Shown here piece by piece: positions 16,251 to 28,216 of a stretch of DNA of 64,000 nucleotides. The stretch comes from Streptomyces tendae (lineage in GTDB: Bacteria > Actinomycetota > Actinomycetes > Streptomycetales > Streptomycetaceae). The notes beneath the pieces are model-generated. The model ran no database searches. It was not told the DNA's origin and was given only the letters and a program-made list of their open reading frames with translations. The translations under genes and the position numbers were made by a program. The stretch is taken from NCBI RefSeq assembly GCF_008632955.1, contig NZ_CP043960.1, positions 310,001 to 374,000 on the forward strand, in the 5' to 3' direction. Numbering within the stretch: position 1 is the stretch's first letter; each line of letters opens with the position of its first letter.

Positions 16251-16665
16251 GACAAGCACCTGCCAGGACTGACAGAGGTGGCCAACTCAATTCGCGAGGG
16301 CGGCGGCTTGTCAGCGGTCCAGCTTCACCACGCGGGGCATCGCGCGAATCCCTACTTTGGAGGGGTACCCTCGCCCGCCTCCAGCCGCACGTTGCCCGGC
16401 ATCTCCGCGTTGTCGACAGCAGAGGTGGAGCGCATCCGTGACAGCTTCATCGCAGGCGCGAAGAGAGCCGAGAAGGCCGGGTTCAACGGCGTCGCAGTCC
16501 ACGGCGCCTTCGAGTGGCCGTGGGAGAGCGAGATCATCTGGTCCTCTCACCCTCCACCAAGCAGCTGACGCGCTCGCCAAGGTCGGCGACATCTGGCAAC
16601 GTTCAATCGAGCGCTCGGGGACTCCTACACGGTCAGGCGGCATCAGCGGATGGTGCACCTTGGGA
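16251..16665 (+). pseudogene. Deletion chimera: OYE middle fused to alpha/beta hydrolase end
   Basis: The frame first reads DKHLPGLTEVANSIREGGGL, VQLHHAGHRANPYFGGVPSP and VERIRDSFIAGAKRAEKAG, then FNGVAVHGAFE, the same segment as residues 87-166 of the OYE at 10545. At 16512 it jumps into sequence matching the hydrolase at 80-880 (bases GTGGGAGAGCGAGAT, VGERDHLVL), and bases near 16595 resemble that gene's last codons. So an OYE-hydrolase operon once stood here and lost its middle. The 5' part is cut by the IS at 15351-16247; the end runs into the opposing MerR gene. Confidence 0.8.
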
Positions 16666-17007
16666 CACAGCGCTCAGATAGTTGTCTAGAGCATTGATGT
16701 TCTGCGTCAGTATGGTTACGCGTTCCTGCAACCGGTCTCGTTCTGCTGCGATCCGGCGAACGAACTCAGGGTCGTCATATTGGGAGCACGCTGCGGCACC
16801 CAGGCATGGGAGAACCTCCCTGATGATCTCCGTGGTAAGCCCAGCCCCGAGCAGGCCGCGAATCTGCTCAACCCGCTCCACAGAAGCTTCGTCGTAGCGG
16901 CGATAGCCATTCTCTTCACGACGCGGGGTGATAAGACCCTGCTCTTCGTAGTAGCGCAAAAGGCGGGTGGATACACCGACCCGCTCCGAAAGCTCCTTGA
17001 TCCTCAT
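16633..17007 (-). CDS. MerR-family transcriptional regulator 2
   Basis: A 124-residue protein from ATG 17007, ribosome site GGGAG (the frame opens two codons earlier at a GTG). MRIKELSERVGVSTRLLRYY, EEQGLITPRREENGYRRYDE and LTTEIIREVLPCLGAAACSQ parallel MerR 1, with an extra cysteine in the tail. It faces the chimera tail to tail, and its own start lies beside operator copy e. Effector unknown. Confidence 0.9.
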   Translation of the reverse strand: MRIKELSERVGVSTRLLRYYEEQGLITPRREENGYRRYDEASVERVEQIRGLLGAGLTTEIIREVLPCLGAAACSQYDDPEFVRRIAAERDRLQERVTILTQNINALDNYLSAVSQGAPSADAA

Positions 17008-17024
17008 CGTCACTCCCTGTCACC

Positions 17025-20497: not shown

Positions 20498-20571
20498 CTA
20501 GGGAACAGCAGGAGAACGCAGGCTCAGAGACCCCTGGCGGGCACCTCTGTGTGTGTCGTTCGCGGTGTGGT

Positions 20572-20596
20572 TTGCCTTCACACTGATGTCAAGGTT
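20572..20596 (+). promoter_or_regulatory. MerR-type operator copy d, upstream of the MFS gene
   Basis: Best copy of the dyad: arms CCTTCACA and TGTCAAGG around CTGA. A CACTAT hexamer about 20 bases after TTGCCT fits a long-spacer MerR promoter reading rightward. It lies 90 bases before the MFS start. No MerR gene adjoins it; the left side is the end of the IS701. Confidence 0.6.
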
Positions 20597-20686
20597 GCAC
20601 TATCGTCTGCGTCCCGCAAGAGCGGTGCATTGAGACGTGGTGAGCCGACAAGCTGCGGCTTCGGCGTGCCAGAGAGGGAAGTAGAA

Positions 20687-21888
20687 ATGACCAAGGTTCA
20701 GGACCCGATAGTGAGGGCGCCGGGACAAGACCGCCTCCCCATCGCAGCTCTCATCTCGCTCTTTATGGCAGGCTTCATCACCACGCTCACTGAGGCTCTG
20801 CCCGCTGGGGTGCTTCCCCAGATGAGCGATGCACTCGGCGTTTCCGAGTCGATGGCCGGACAGACGGTGACCATCTACGCCGTTGCAACGCTGCTCACAG
20901 CGATCCCTGTGGCCGTCGCCACCACGAACTGGCCCAGGCGACACCTTCTTGTCGTCGCGCTCATCGGATTCCTCGTCGCCAACCTCGTGACAGCGGTCTC
21001 CGTCAACTACACGATCACGATGGTGGCGAGGTTCGTTGCCGGCGCAGCGTCGGGTGTGACGTGGAGCATCCTGGGTGGCTATGCGCAGCGCATCACCCGG
21101 ACGCCCTGAAGGGCAGGGCCATGGCCTTCGCTTTCGCCGGCACGCCCGTCGCGCTCGCCCTGGGTGTTCCAGTCGGAGCGTTCCTCGGTCAGATTGTGGG
21201 CTGGCAGCTGACCTTCGGCCTCATGTCGGTGCTCGCCGCGCTGCTCATCGCCTGGACGATGTGGAAGCTGCCGAACGTCCCCGGCCAGAAGGCCGCCGAG
21301 CGGCTGCCCCTTCCTCACCTCCTTCGTATCCGAGGCCTTCGCACCATCCTGATCGTCACCGGCGTGTATGTGCTCGCTCACACCATCCTCTACACATACA
21401 TCGCACCCGTGCTGGCGGGCGTGGGGCTCGAGGACCAGGTGCAGTGGATTCTGCTGGCCTTCGGTGTCGCCTCGATCCTGAGCATCTGGCTCACCGGGTT
21501 GTTCGTCGACCGGCATCACCGCCGCCTCGTCATCCTGAGCACTGTGTTCTTCGCCGTGGCGGCGGTCGCGCTGACCCTCTGGTCGGAGAACGTGGTCGTG
21601 GACTACGTCGCAGTGACGGCCTGGGGGCTCGCGTTCGGCGGGGCCGCGACCCTGTTCCAGGGCGCGCTGATGTCAGCGTCGCGTGAACACGCCGACGCCG
21701 CCCAGCCGCTGATGGTCACGATGTGGAACGGCGGAATCGGCCTCGGCGGGCTGATCGGCGGCATCCTCCTCGCCAGCCTTGGATCGGCGTCGCTCATGAT
21801 CGCCGTCGCAGTCCTCGTCATCTTCACAGTCGTCGTCGTGGTCCTCGCACGAAGTCACGCATTCCCCGGACCCAGCGCCAAGTCTTGA
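20687..21888 (+). pseudogene. MFS drug-efflux transporter (DHA1-like) with one-base frameshift
   Basis: The first 141 residues (LPIAALISLFMAGFITTLTE, LGVSESMAGQTVTIYAVATL, VARFVAGAASGVTWSILGGY) form the start of a 12-helix major-facilitator exporter. After AQRIT the frame is lost in an ACCCGG run that should read ACCCCGG. It resumes one base back as PDALKGRAMAFAFAGTPVAL through to VFTVVVVVLARSHAFPGPSA-type C-terminal helices. Apart from the missing C near 21102 the roughly 400-residue protein is complete. It would export a small toxic compound with protons. It heads the MFS-FrnE-peptide group and lies under operator d. Confidence 0.85.
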
Positions 21889-21922
21889 CGGGCCCCGACG
21901 TATCGAACTGAACGTGAGAGAA

Positions 21923-21944
21923 AGCGGGACATGACCGTCCCGCT
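21923..21944 (+). terminator. Small hairpin after the MFS gene
   Basis: Stem AGCGGGAC / GTCCCGCT with a six-base loop, 35 bases after the MFS stop. It may attenuate read-through into the FrnE gene. No U-tract. Confidence 0.35.
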
Positions 21945-22026
21945 CCGTCCCTTCACCAGTGCTCGGGCTCGTGATCACCGCCTAGAGCACCGGTGAAGGC
22001 CCACCGGTTGCGAGAAAGAAGAGGCC

Positions 22027-22737
22027 ATGACCACTGACCAGAACACTGCCCCCACACCGACACCCACATCCACGCCCTCGGCTGGGATCGATCCGATCCG
22101 AGTCGATGTGTGGTCGGACATCGCTTGCCCCTGGTGCTACATCGGTAAGCGGAAGTTTGAAAAGGCTCTGACCGTAACCGGCATCCCGGTGGAGATCGAG
22201 TACCACGCGTATGAACTCGCGCCGGATCTGCCAGAGGAGTTCGAGGGAAGCGAGCAGGACTACCTGGAGATCCGCGGATTCACGGCCGATCAGGTTCAGC
22301 CCCTGCTCTCCAGGATCGTTGCCGCGGCAAAGGCTGTTGGACTGGACTTCAACTACGACATCCTCCGGCACACGAACATGCTCAAGGGACATCAGCTGAT
22401 CCGGTGGGCCAAGGCGGAGGGGCACCAGCTCGACATGGTCGAACGAATCCTCGCCGCTCACTTCGAGGAGGGGCGACACGTCGGCCGGGACGAGGATCTC
22501 GCCGAGCTCGCTGCAGAGATAGGACTCGACCGCGAGAAGGCGCTCAGCGCACTCAGGGAGGGCCGGTATGCCGACGATGTACGGGCCGACGAAGCCAAGG
22601 CACGACAGCTCGGGATCCAGAGCGTCCCCTTCTACGTGTTCGAGAACACCTATGGAGTCGCAGGAGCACAGGATCCAGCGGCATTCGCCGACATCCTGCG
22701 CCAGCTAGCCGAGAAGAAGCAGGAGACCACTCAATGA
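22027..22737 (+). CDS. FrnE-like DsbA-family thiol oxidoreductase
   Basis: A 236-residue thioredoxin-fold protein. After a Pro/Thr-rich N-terminal 20 residues comes IRVDVWSDIACPWCYIGKRK with the CPWC active site (Cys34, Cys37). Then follow YHAYELAPDLPEEF, HTNMLKGHQLIRWAKAEG and the cis-Pro loop IQSVPFYVFENTYGVAGAQ. There is no export signal, so it is a cytoplasmic disulfide oxidoreductase/isomerase as FrnE proteins usually are. Its stop overlaps the start of the next gene (ATGA), so the two are translationally coupled. It follows the MFS gene, suggesting a shared stress or detoxification role. Confidence 0.9.
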   Translation: MTTDQNTAPTPTPTSTPSAGIDPIRVDVWSDIACPWCYIGKRKFEKALTVTGIPVEIEYHAYELAPDLPEEFEGSEQDYLEIRGFTADQVQPLLSRIVAAAKAVGLDFNYDILRHTNMLKGHQLIRWAKAEGHQLDMVERILAAHFEEGRHVGRDEDLAELAAEIGLDREKALSALREGRYADDVRADEAKARQLGIQSVPFYVFENTYGVAGAQDPAAFADILRQLAEKKQETTQ

Positions 22738-22934
22738 CCGAGGAAAAGCCCAGCCCGCTCACCCAACTACCCGTCCCCACGGCCGCCACCTGCATCGACG
22801 GCGTGTGCACAATACCCGAGGAAGAATCGAGCCCCATCGTCCAACTACCGGCGCCGGCAGCCGCCACCTGCATCGACGGCCTGTGCACGATACCCGACGT
22901 CACTGATCACTCGGAGAACCAGCCAGCGAGCTGA
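22734..22934 (+). CDS. Small protein with two CIDGxC repeats, coupled to FrnE
   Basis: A 66-residue protein starting inside the FrnE stop. It consists of two copies of a 26-residue unit: PSPLTQLPVPTAATCIDGVC-TIP and SSPIVQLPAPAAATCIDGLC-TIP. These give two Cys-x4-Cys pairs in an otherwise Pro/Ala-rich, cysteine-free chain. Some FrnE-like proteins are thought to end in a short CGPDGC-type tail; this looks like such a tail detached and doubled, which is my inference. It could be a thiol relay, a metal-binding peptide or a substrate of the FrnE partner. No known family assigned. Confidence 0.75.
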   Translation: MTEEKPSPLTQLPVPTAATCIDGVCTIPEEESSPIVQLPAPAAATCIDGLCTIPDVTDHSENQPAS

Positions 22935-22939
22935 TGGCT

Positions 22940-22965
22940 GCCGCCTGTGGACACCCACAGGCGGC
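22940..22965 (+). terminator. Strong hairpin terminator after the FrnE/peptide genes
   Basis: An 11-bp perfect stem (GCCGCCTGTGG / CCACAGGCGGC) with loop ACAC, starting 5 bases after the stop codon. Streptomyces terminators often lack a U-tract. It marks the end of the transcription unit. Confidence 0.75.
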
Positions 22966-23590
22966 ACCGACGCATAGACACATGGGCCGCGCGGCGCCGG
23001 GGCCGGCCGCGCTTGCCCCGCACTGGTGGTACGGCCTGGAGCAGCGGGATCAAGCTGGGTGACGTCGTTGCGATTGCCGCCGGTCAGAGTAGCGGCGAGT
23101 GGGATGCCGGTCGCGTCGGTGATCAGGTGGTCCTTTGCTGCCCGTCCTACCCCGATCGACAGGGCTTCGTCCCGTCTTGGGGCCTCCTTTAACACGCGGA
23201 TGTGGGAGCCGTCGACAGCCGCGCGGGAGAAGTCCAGGGCGTTCGCGCCGCGGAGCTCGGCGAGGAGGACCTCGTGCAGCAGTGGCCACACCCCGCCTCG
23301 GTCCATTCGGCCAGGCGGCGCCAGCAGGTCATGCCGGAGCCCGAAGCCGAGTTCCTGCGGAAGGTGTTCCCAGGCGATCCCGGTGTGCAGCACGAACTGA
23401 TCCCCTGGAACACCAGCCGGTCCAGATGCCGCTTGCGCCCTGGGTGCCGAGCCCGACGCTCCACCTTGGGCAACAACGGCTCGATCACCGCCCACAGCTC
23501 GTCACCGACATCCCACGGCTTCGGTCGCGCCACCCCACACCCCCGGGTCATCCAGTCCCGGAGTGATCCAACCACCTCGAAGATTATTTC
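22966..23590 (-). pseudogene. IS5-family (type B) transposase remnant
   Basis: Minus-strand frames give KPWDVGDELWAVIEPLLPKV and HPGRKRHLDRLVFQGI, then shift to QFVLHTGIAWEHLPQELGFG, LDFSRAAVDGSHIRVLKEAP and DHLITDATGIPLAATLTGGN. These are the N-terminal domain and first Asp of the transposase; the part with the second Asp and Glu is missing. At least one indel. Its far end adjoins the IS630. Confidence 0.75.
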
Positions 23591-26332: not shown

Positions 26333-28216
26333 CTACTGTCGGCTGCCTCCCCGTTCAACCAGCACTTGCTGGCGTGCAAGCTGCACCGCCCGGGTCAGCG
26401 ATGCAATGTCGTACGCACCGTGATGTCGCCGACCGTTGATGAAGAACGTCGGCGTGCCCGAAACTCCGCTCAGATCGGCCGAATCCACATCTTCGGCTAC
26501 CCGCCGTGCACTGACGTGCTGTTCCAGTGCACGGCGGAACCGTTCCACGTCCAGACCGAGCTCCTGCGCGTAGCGCAATAGGTCTTCTCCGCCCAAGGCA
26601 TCCTGCCGGTTAAGGAGTAGGTCATGCATCTCCCAAAACCGGCCCTGTTGTGCCGCCGCCTCCGCAGCTTCCGCTGCTAACTGTGCGTTGGGGTGCACGT
26701 CTGTGAGAGGCAGATGCCGCCACACGTAGCGAAGATCGGTTTCGGCTCCTAGCAGCTCGCGCACCACCTGCTCAGCCTGCCCGCAGTACGGGCAGGCAAA
26801 GTCGCCGTACTCGACCACCGTCACGGAAGCCTTCTGTGGTCCTCTGATGTGGTCATCGTGAGCGTCGACAACTACCGCAAGATCTGTGAGCTGCTCGGAG
26901 TTGCCCAGCAAGGCTCTAGCTTGCCGGGTGGCAGGCAGCAGCTGGATAAACCCCGTTACTGCCCAGCTGAGGCTGAAGGCGCCGATGAGCGTGGCGAGAA
27001 TGCCGATGCGGGCACGTTCTAGATCCTTCCCTTCGAAGGCAAGCGCGGCGATCAGCAGCGACACCGTGAACGCCGCGCCGGTGATGGCGCCGCTGGCGGT
27101 CACCGAACCCCAGCCCACGTTCGGCTTCAGTCGGCCGCCGGACAGGATTTGCGCGGCAGCCATAGATCCCGTGACCCCGACCAGCTTGCCGCCTGCGAAG
27201 CCACACAGGATGCCGAGCGTGATGGGTGACGTGAACGCGTCTGCCAACTTCTCGCCGCTCAACTCGATGCCAGCATTGGCCAGGGCGAACAGTGGAACGA
27301 TGAGGTAGCTCACCCAAGGCAAGAATCTCTGCTCCAGTCTCTCGTTCGGTGAGATCGCCGCCGACAGTCCCTGGAACGCGCTGCGCTGCAGTTTGGGCGT
27401 CGGTTGCTCGCGGAACAAACGGAACAGTCGACTTGCCCGCTCTAGGTCTTCCCGTGGAGCCGGGTAAGCGACCACCAGGGCGCCGACCGCCAGGCCTGTC
27501 ACTACAGGGTCCACCCCGGCTTCATGTAGCGAGATCCACGCCACTACCGACAGCACCGCGCAGTACACCGCGCCGCGCACCTTCAACATCCGGAGCAGAA
27601 GGATTGACAGTAGCGCCCCTACCGCAACAAGGAGGGCCGGTAGGTGAATCGAGTCGCTGTAGAACACTGCAATCACTACCAGAGCGACAAGATCGTCAAC
27701 TACAGAGATTGAGAGAATGAATGCTCGCAGTGATGCTGGCAGCCTCCTGCCGAACACAGCCAAGATACCCAACGCGAACGCGGTGTCGGATGACATTGCC
27801 ACGCCCCATCCGTGCACCGTCCCATGTCCTGCGTTCAAGGCTACAAAGATCAAGGCTGGAACGATCATGCTCCCCAGGCCCGCAATGGTGCTAAGCAGCA
27901 CCCACCTGCGGTCGCGCAACGCGCCCATGTCAAACTCGCGACGCGCTTCCAGTCCGATGACGAAGAAGAACAGGCTCATTAGCCCGGCATTGATCCATTC
28001 ATGCAGGGTGATCGACAGATGAAAGGCATCGAAGCCGATCACGAAGTGCGTTTCCCAAGCAGAAGTGTAGGAGCGCACGTCGATGTTGGCCCACAGCAAG
28101 GCCGCCGCGACCATCGCCAGCAGCAGGGCGGCGCTGCCGGTCTCGGTCTGCAGAAAGCTGCGCCAGCGTGCTGCGCTCTGAGCGGTAAATCGCGCGTCGC
28201 TCTCATTGTGGCTCAT
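26333..28216 (-). CDS. nhaA: Na+/H+ antiporter NhaA fused to a DsbA-like thioredoxin domain
   Basis: A 627-residue protein. Residues 1 to about 430 are Nha[61 protein letters not shown] (the Asp matching E. coli Asp133) and [20 protein letters not shown] (the Asp163-Asp164 pair for cation exchange), with about 11-12 helices. The last 170 residues are a DsbA/DsbG-type domain with [20 protein letters not shown] and [20 protein letters not shown]. Such fusions occur in actinobacteria; the role of the thiol domain is unclear, possibly redox control of transport. It exports sodium for protons across the cell membrane. Single gene, start [10 protein letters not shown]. Confidence 0.95.

What the first reader, a model, noticed from the sequence alone, without database searches (positions are those of the whole stretch)
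20572..22965. MFS exporter, FrnE oxidoreductase and a twin-CIDGxC peptide form a small redox/export unit
A 66-residue protein made of two 26-residue units, each with one Cys-x4-Cys in TCIDGxCTIP, is translationally coupled to a CPWC thiol oxidoreductase, follows an exporter and ends in a strong terminator, all under operator d. The peptide has only those four cysteines. It may be a dedicated FrnE substrate, a detached duplicated FrnE tail acting as thiol relay, or a metal scavenger. I know of no described family.
Basis: partly seen in the sequence, partly recalled or inferred. Interest (0 to 1): 0.7.

Follow-up and report, generated by a model that had tools for sequence, protein, structure and literature searches.

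The report
Detached, doubled redox tail of FrnE
The small protein is the two-cysteine tail of a known stress-defence enzyme (FrnE) that has become its own gene and been doubled, and relatives suggest that many soil bacteria make this tail as a separate helper protein.

Summary
The 66-residue peptide (22734-22934), with two 26-residue C-x4-C units, overlaps the FrnE stop by ATGA. The exporter's frame is broken in this assembly, probably by a sequencing error, and exporters are not generally linked. Peptide and FrnE recur on a Streptomyces griseorubiginosus plasmid and, with one unit, in Herbiconiux. Of 154 FrnE loci kept, 63 carry a separate ORF with C-x4/5-C beside FrnE, 32 carry the motif as FrnE's own C-terminal tail, 0 carry both, 59 neither. 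All separate forms fall in one clade without fused forms. A profile of separate modules has, as best hit among 177,635 PDB sequences, residues 225-248 of Deinococcus FrnE (E 0.034): its CXXXXC tail, which a review says sits at a partner molecule's active site and helps regenerate it. Best reading: the peptide is a detached, tandem-duplicated FrnE tail that exchanges disulfides with CPWC in trans. Homology is well supported; in-trans function is inferred. The review expects tail-less FrnE to be regenerated differently; here the missing tail is a neighbouring gene, in two genomes the gene before FrnE, and in one genus apparently an unlinked gene. New variant of a known kind.

The parts
20576..20593 (.). 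Dyad CTTCACACTGATGTCAAG, likely operator of a MerR-type regulator, before the exporter
   Evidence: 4 sites in window, 0.4 matches expected; also before the unit in S. griseorubiginosus. Regulator type inferred from a MerR-family gene in the window
20687..21888 (+). MFS exporter gene, frame broken by a single-base indel near 21.1 kb in this assembly
   Evidence: intact relative P0003
22027..22737 (+). FrnE-type DsbA-family oxidoreductase, 236 aa, tail-less (no Cys after CPWC)
   Evidence: D. radiodurans FrnE E 6.9e-46; PF01323 E 6.8e-36
22126..22137 (+). CPWC active-site motif of FrnE
   Evidence: sequence
22734..22934 (+). Detached FrnE-tail protein, 66 aa, start codon overlapping the FrnE stop (ATGA)
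   Evidence: dN 0.15 and dS 0.68 against the S. griseorubiginosus homologue
22752..22829 (+). Unit 1, SPLTQLPVPTAATCIDGVCTIPEEES
   Evidence: separate-module HMM 22.1 bits, 0 of 200 Cys-fixed shuffles reach it
22830..22907 (+). Unit 2, SPIVQLPAPAAATCIDGLCTIPDVTD
   Evidence: 17.8 bits, 0 of 200 Cys-fixed shuffles reach it
22936..22968 (+). Strong hairpin after the peptide, no T-run; possible terminator
   Evidence: -28.8 kcal/mol, z -6.5

Best explanation
The peptide is the C-terminal CXXXXC module of FrnE, encoded as a separate, translationally coupled microprotein and duplicated in tandem in this Streptomyces plasmid lineage. FrnE (CPWC) exchanges disulfides with stressed cytoplasmic proteins or thiols; the C-x4-C dithiol of the peptide docks at CPWC in trans, as the fused tail of one Deinococcus FrnE molecule does at the active site of another, and takes over the disulfide (or passes electrons in), regenerating the active site. 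Shown here: homology, conservation of both Cys, coupling, mutual exclusion with fused tails, purifying selection. Inferred: binding, disulfide transfer, and that the two units give two dithiols per chain or bind two FrnE molecules. The setting (MerR-type operator, old-yellow-enzyme-like genes nearby, exporter) suggests defence against thiol-reactive or electrophilic compounds.
For: Fused and separate forms exclude each other: of 154 loci kept, 63 separate, 32 fused, 59 neither, 0 both. All 64 separate rows (63 plus window) lie in one branch set of 93 rows with support 99 and 0 fused rows. 57 of 63 start at -4 (ATGA/GTGA-type overlap), 5 at -8. Profile of separate modules: best of 177,635 PDB sequences is D. 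radiodurans FrnE 225-248 (E 0.034), the 239-CXXXXC-244 tail. Fused-tail HMM puts 51 of 64 separate peptides above the 99th percentile of shuffles, 44 of 64 above Cys-fixed shuffles; profile-profile probability 95%. The separate-module HMM, trained on 61 without window, L004 and L016, gives the window peptide 32.4 bits. Peptide dN 0.15, dS 0.68. Gene order can be reversed: in two genomes of one genus the module gene ends at the start of a tail-less FrnE. The own chromosome carries two FrnE with fused tails. Review PMC8945050 (passages): tail of one molecule at the active site of another, Cys244-Cys22 disulfide, tail Cys needed for full TrxR-coupled activity.
Against: The window peptide scores only 1.0 bit against the fused-tail HMM, below the shuffle threshold of 4.5; its link runs through the separate-module family. 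In the reverse test only 11 of 32 fused tails pass. The PDB hit is not significant on its own, and 3 of the 29 profile rows come from this peptide or its plasmid homologue. The hhalign inputs were cut around the motif by me. In S. griseorubiginosus unit 1 has lost its first Cys, so doubling is not essential there. 29 of 93 rows in the clade have no module nearby, so FrnE of this type can do without an adjacent one. No binding, expression or redox data.
Confidence: 0.74

Rival explanations
1. Dedicated substrate: FrnE oxidises or reduces the peptide, which then acts elsewhere (signal, carrier to another enzyme), rather than serving FrnE's own regeneration.
For: Unlinked module genes in a Microbacterium-like genus (17 of 59 genomes at E 0.01; motif ORFs read in 13 of the 17 loci) and a module at the N-terminus of a glutathione S-transferase family protein beside FrnE in Paracoccus show that it can occur away from FrnE's own chain.
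Against: Homology to a tail that in solved structures sits at CPWC; overlapping start with frnE in 62 of 63 loci.
Confidence: 0.12
2. Decaying remnant: tail cut off by a frameshift, duplicated by chance, no function.
For: Unit 1 of the S. griseorubiginosus copy has lost a Cys; modules absent in 29 of 93 clade rows.
Against: dN/dS about 0.22 for the whole peptide and about 0.16 for the unit 2 region; same arrangement kept across Microbacteriaceae, Gordonia, Williamsia, Cellulomonas and Solirubrobacter.
Confidence: 0.07
3. Not separate in practice: a -1 frameshift joins tail and FrnE in some molecules.
For: The ORFs overlap in the -1 frame in 57 of 63 loci.
Against: ATG or GTG stands at the overlap (37 and 25 of 63); Shine-Dalgarno-like sequence in 39 of 63 (a loose pattern); 5 loci use the other frame; the gene can lie upstream. 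Slippery sites not tested.
Confidence: 0.04
4. Metal scavenger or metallothionein-like peptide.
For: Cys-containing small protein; MerR-type operators can be metal-responsive (recalled).
Against: One C-x4-C per unit, no CxC or CxxC; family homologous to a redox tail.
Confidence: 0.03

Closest known systems
C-terminal CXXXXC tail of Deinococcus radiodurans FrnE (DR_0659; PDB 5cnw and others)
   Same: PLTMLG...C-x4-C...VP layout; aligns to residues 225-248; belongs with a CPWC DsbA-type FrnE; acts across molecules in crystals (review passages)
   Different: Fused to FrnE there; here a separate coupled gene with two units
Fused tails of the host's own chromosomal FrnE (L127, L128)
   Same: C-x4/5-C near the C-terminus (AGCDADGSCAVP; PLTLV...ACGPDGCEVP)
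   Different: Single, fused; the enzymes are 36-39% identical to the window's FrnE
FrnE/DsbA in allicin-resistance clusters (Pseudomonas PfAR-1, PMC7119367)
   Same: FrnE-like gene with an old yellow enzyme gene; confers thiol-stress resistance (passages)
   Different: No separate tail described in the passages seen; no exporter of this kind mentioned there

Membership tests
FrnE subfamily of DsbA oxidoreductases (22027-22737) | DsbA-type thioredoxin domain | tested here: met
   PF01323 E 6.8e-36; D. radiodurans FrnE E 6.9e-46
FrnE subfamily of DsbA oxidoreductases (22027-22737) | CPWC/CPFC active site | tested here: met
   CPWC at residues 34-37
FrnE subfamily of DsbA oxidoreductases (22027-22737) | C-terminal CXXXXC in the same chain (many, not all, members) | tested here: not met
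   No Cys after CPWC in the chain; the motif is in the next gene
Separate FrnE-tail module (defined here) | Hydrophobic stretch, A, C-x4-C, hydrophobic, P | tested here: met
   Both units pass the HMM trained without them
Separate FrnE-tail module (defined here) | Exchanges disulfides with CPWC | not testable with these tools
Metallothioneins | Many Cys in CxC/CxxC clusters | tested here: not met
   4 Cys in 66 residues, none in CxC or CxxC
Curated families in Pfam and NCBIfam | Match to any model | tested here: not met
   Window peptide: no NCBIfam match, two weak Pfam matches below cut-off; 25 relatives: only single weak matches

The most novel reading that the evidence does not exclude
The FrnE C-x4-C tail is a portable dithiol microprotein, a small soluble redox carrier that bacteria attach to FrnE, place beside it on either side, fuse to a glutathione S-transferase-like protein, or keep as an unlinked gene; doubled forms such as this one bridge two FrnE molecules or carry two disulfides. 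Tail-less FrnE enzymes would then be one half of a two-component thiol reductase.
Probability: 0.35. Interest if true: 0.78.

Novelty: new variant of a known kind. Interest (0 to 1): 0.62.

Why it matters
A review of Deinococcus thiol reductases (passages read) takes the lack of the CXXXXC tail in some FrnE to suggest a different regeneration mechanism. Here the tail of many tail-less FrnE is found as a separate small gene (annotated 'hypothetical protein' in the one annotated record seen). That makes the regeneration question directly testable by adding the peptide back to the enzyme, offers a natural split system for studying tail-to-active-site disulfide exchange, and gives a likely function to an unnamed small-protein family.

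Tried and rejected
Exporter as part of a peptide-export unit: rejected as a general feature, because it is adjacent in only L004 and L016 of 63 separate-module loci. Duplication as the key feature: no locus among the 63 has two full motifs, and the sister copy has lost a Cys, so doubling is a local elaboration. Phages: no match for the unit or the peptide. Genus-wide peptide search: 2 of 199 genomes, one of them the own genome and the other a spurious 38% match with a stop. CIDGxC DNA pattern: only the own genome among 394, which only shows that the exact motif is rare. Genome-contig scan with the peptide: no relatives found; the FrnE scan succeeded. Erwinia GST-family gene (H67): the stretch upstream of its annotated start has no C-x4-C. 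Loss of the module in Microbacterium was first assumed; unlinked copies were then found in part of that genus. Alignment A2 with short peptides beside full FrnE was misaligned and not used. Loci classed by a looser rule gave 67 separate, 57 none, 34 fused of 158; the stricter rule (start at -8 to +2 and a D or G in the motif), set after seeing those rows, gave 63, 61 and 34, and set aside non-fitting ORFs in 8 loci. Dropped before the final count of 154: L011 (truncated), L127 and L128 (same genes as L145, L146), L129 (stop inside). L096 and L126 (the window's own two copies) and L130, L131 (no FrnE match at 1e-15) were never classed.

Full report
WHAT IS THERE. The window is bases 310001-374000 of contig C2 (408 kb) of a 7.3-Mb genome in three contigs (contig length). 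FrnE (22027-22737, 236 aa, CPWC) overlaps by ATGA a 66-residue protein at 22734-22934 made of two 26-residue units, each with C-x4-C. The exporter upstream is split by a single-base frameshift near 21.1 kb. A second copy of the whole unit lies on the same contig (peptide at C2:293558-293755); over 2.45 kb the two copies differ only by two single-base homopolymer indels, each breaking the exporter of one copy at a different place. Assembly error is the simplest reading; peptide and FrnE are identical in both.

CLOSE RELATIVES. The same order, with an intact exporter, lies on S. griseorubiginosus plasmid NZ_CP107767.1; its unit 1 has lost the first Cys (TGIDGTCTTP), unit 2 is intact. Peptide dN is 0.15 and dS 0.68 (unit 1 region 0.21/0.74, unit 2 region 0.10/0.64), FrnE 0.03/0.29. 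Herbiconiux ginsengi (Microbacteriaceae) has exporter, FrnE (80%) and a coupled one-unit protein (AAACVDGVCEMP), with a divergent gene upstream that matches old-yellow-enzyme-like genes of the window (that family name is by eye, not scanned). I infer transfer from Microbacteriaceae-like donors and later duplication of the unit.

THE MODULE IN FrnE GENES AT LARGE. I examined FrnE loci from genome contigs (80, chosen by similarity to the window's FrnE, so enriched for its clade), from whole genomes of the class (30 loci, 6 own-genome loci, 40 stretches) and six plasmid records. Of these 162, four were not classed and four more were dropped as duplicates or broken; 154 remained: 63 with a separate C-x4/5-C ORF, 32 with the motif as FrnE's own tail, 59 with neither, 0 with both. 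Start offsets of the separate ORF are -4 in 57, -8 in 5 and +2 in 1. As a control without motif selection, every ORF of 20 or more residues starting at -8, -4, -1, +1 or +2 after a tail-less FrnE was read: 73 ORFs, 77 neighbouring Cys pairs, of which 63 have spacing x4 and 3 have x5. Of the 63 separate modules 60 have C-x4-C and 3 have C-x5-C.

TREE. On a tree of 155 FrnE domains without tails (quick IQ-TREE), all 64 separate rows lie in one set of 93 rows, support 99, with 29 'none' rows (26 of them one mostly Microbacterium branch) and no fused row. Long branches exist and the tree is a quick one; gain and loss are not distinguished.

HOMOLOGY TO THE KNOWN TAIL. An HMM of 32 fused tails scores 51 of 64 separate peptides above the 99th percentile of shuffles, and 44 of 64 above shuffles that keep the cysteines in place. 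The window peptide itself reaches only 1.0 bit there. An HMM of 61 separate modules trained without window, L004 and L016 gives the window peptide 32.4 bits, unit 1 22.1 and unit 2 17.8, none reached by 200 Cys-fixed shuffles each. In the reverse direction 11 of 32 fused tails pass. Profile against profile gives 95% (inputs cut around the motif by me). The more independent check is the PDB search: the profile of 29 modules (2 from the window, 1 from S. griseorubiginosus) finds D. radiodurans FrnE first of 177,635 sequences, E 0.034, residues 225-248, APLTMLGQDAPAEGCEDGQCAVPQ; the only two further hits up to E 10 are small neurotoxins matched over eight residues.

WHAT THE TAIL DOES. From review PMC8945050 (passages only): drFrnE has 22-CXXC-25 and 239-CXXXXC-244; in all crystals the tail of one molecule lies at the active site of another; a Cys244-Cys22 disulfide was seen; tail cysteines matter for activity with NADPH and TrxR; FrnE without the tail (D. 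maricopensis, S. roseofulvus) are said to suggest a different regeneration mechanism. PMC11164402 (passages) repeats the tail's proposed role. The original structure paper was not held. A tail that works across molecules is just what could be encoded separately.

OTHER ARRANGEMENTS. In a scan of 197 class genomes with the module profile, 17 had a match at E 0.05. FrnE lay in the matched locus in 11 of them, counting the own genome (tblastn): the module follows FrnE in 9, and in 2 genomes of one genus (G302, G359) the module gene sits just upstream of a tail-less, 34-35% identical FrnE, its stop overlapping the likely GTG start. The other 6 were unlinked or weak. In the Microbacterium-like genus of G298 the module is unlinked: a profile of five such proteins finds 17 of 59 genomes, with motif ORFs read in 13 of the 17 loci, while FrnE is in 55 of 59. 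Unlinked modules occur in 15 of 18 genomes whose FrnE is at most 70% identical to L086 and in 2 of 36 above; counted by me, with 5 genomes left out (4 without FrnE, 1 with only a distant one); Fisher p 1.1e-8, not corrected for kinship within the genus. In Paracoccus a module (CDGGLC) opens the glutathione S-transferase family gene that overlaps the end of FrnE. Among eight further plasmid FrnE looked at by eye, five have fused C-x4-C-type tails and three have none.

SETTING. The dyad before the unit occurs at four places in the window and, with at most one mismatch, at seven places on C2 and one on the 6.9-Mb contig C1; an intact old-yellow-enzyme-like gene (by eye) follows one of them at the window's left edge, and a MerR-family gene lies at 16633-17013. 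FrnE-like genes accompany old yellow enzyme in allicin resistance clusters (PMC7119367, passages) and OsmC, thioredoxin and flavin oxidoreductase genes on Bacillales plasmids. Thiol-reactive stress is the likely occasion; the inducer is unknown.

PRIORITY. Searches of the held library for FrnE with CX4C, Deinococcus and disulfide, CXXXXC, small protein, mycothiol and related words, operon and electrophile, and for drFrnE showed no report of a separate tail in listings or passages read; subscription papers are mostly not held. Pfam and NCBIfam hold no model that fits it.

LIMITS.

Noticed in passing
C2:293502-295954 of the own genome (in L005), copy of window 20536-22988: Second copy of the exporter-FrnE-peptide unit, identical but for two single-base homopolymer indels, in unrelated flanks.
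   Followed up: yes
window 26333-28216 (-): 627-residue protein joining an NhaA-type Na+/H+ antiporter to a C-terminal DsbA/thioredoxin domain.
   Followed up: no
window 8372, 10447, 13362, 20576: Four copies of a CTTcACAtnnnTGTnAAG dyad; the set is on this contig and nearly absent from the 6.9-Mb contig.
   Followed up: partly
L012:4648-5427 (Paracoccus sanguinis plasmid): FrnE-tail module at the N-terminus of a glutathione S-transferase family protein coupled to FrnE.
   Followed up: partly
L215-L219 (Microbacterium-like genus): Unlinked FrnE-tail proteins in a conserved neighbourhood; in L216 it holds an MFS gene, an ABC transporter and a DUF6328 gene.
   Followed up: partly
L068 (Gordonia jinhuaensis) after FrnE: Module ORF reads on into a longer protein that looks like a tyrosine phosphatase (family recalled, not scanned).
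   Followed up: no
window 15-25 kb: Several transposase-like ORFs and a fragment of an old-yellow-enzyme-like gene; the region looks much rearranged (families by eye).
   Followed up: no
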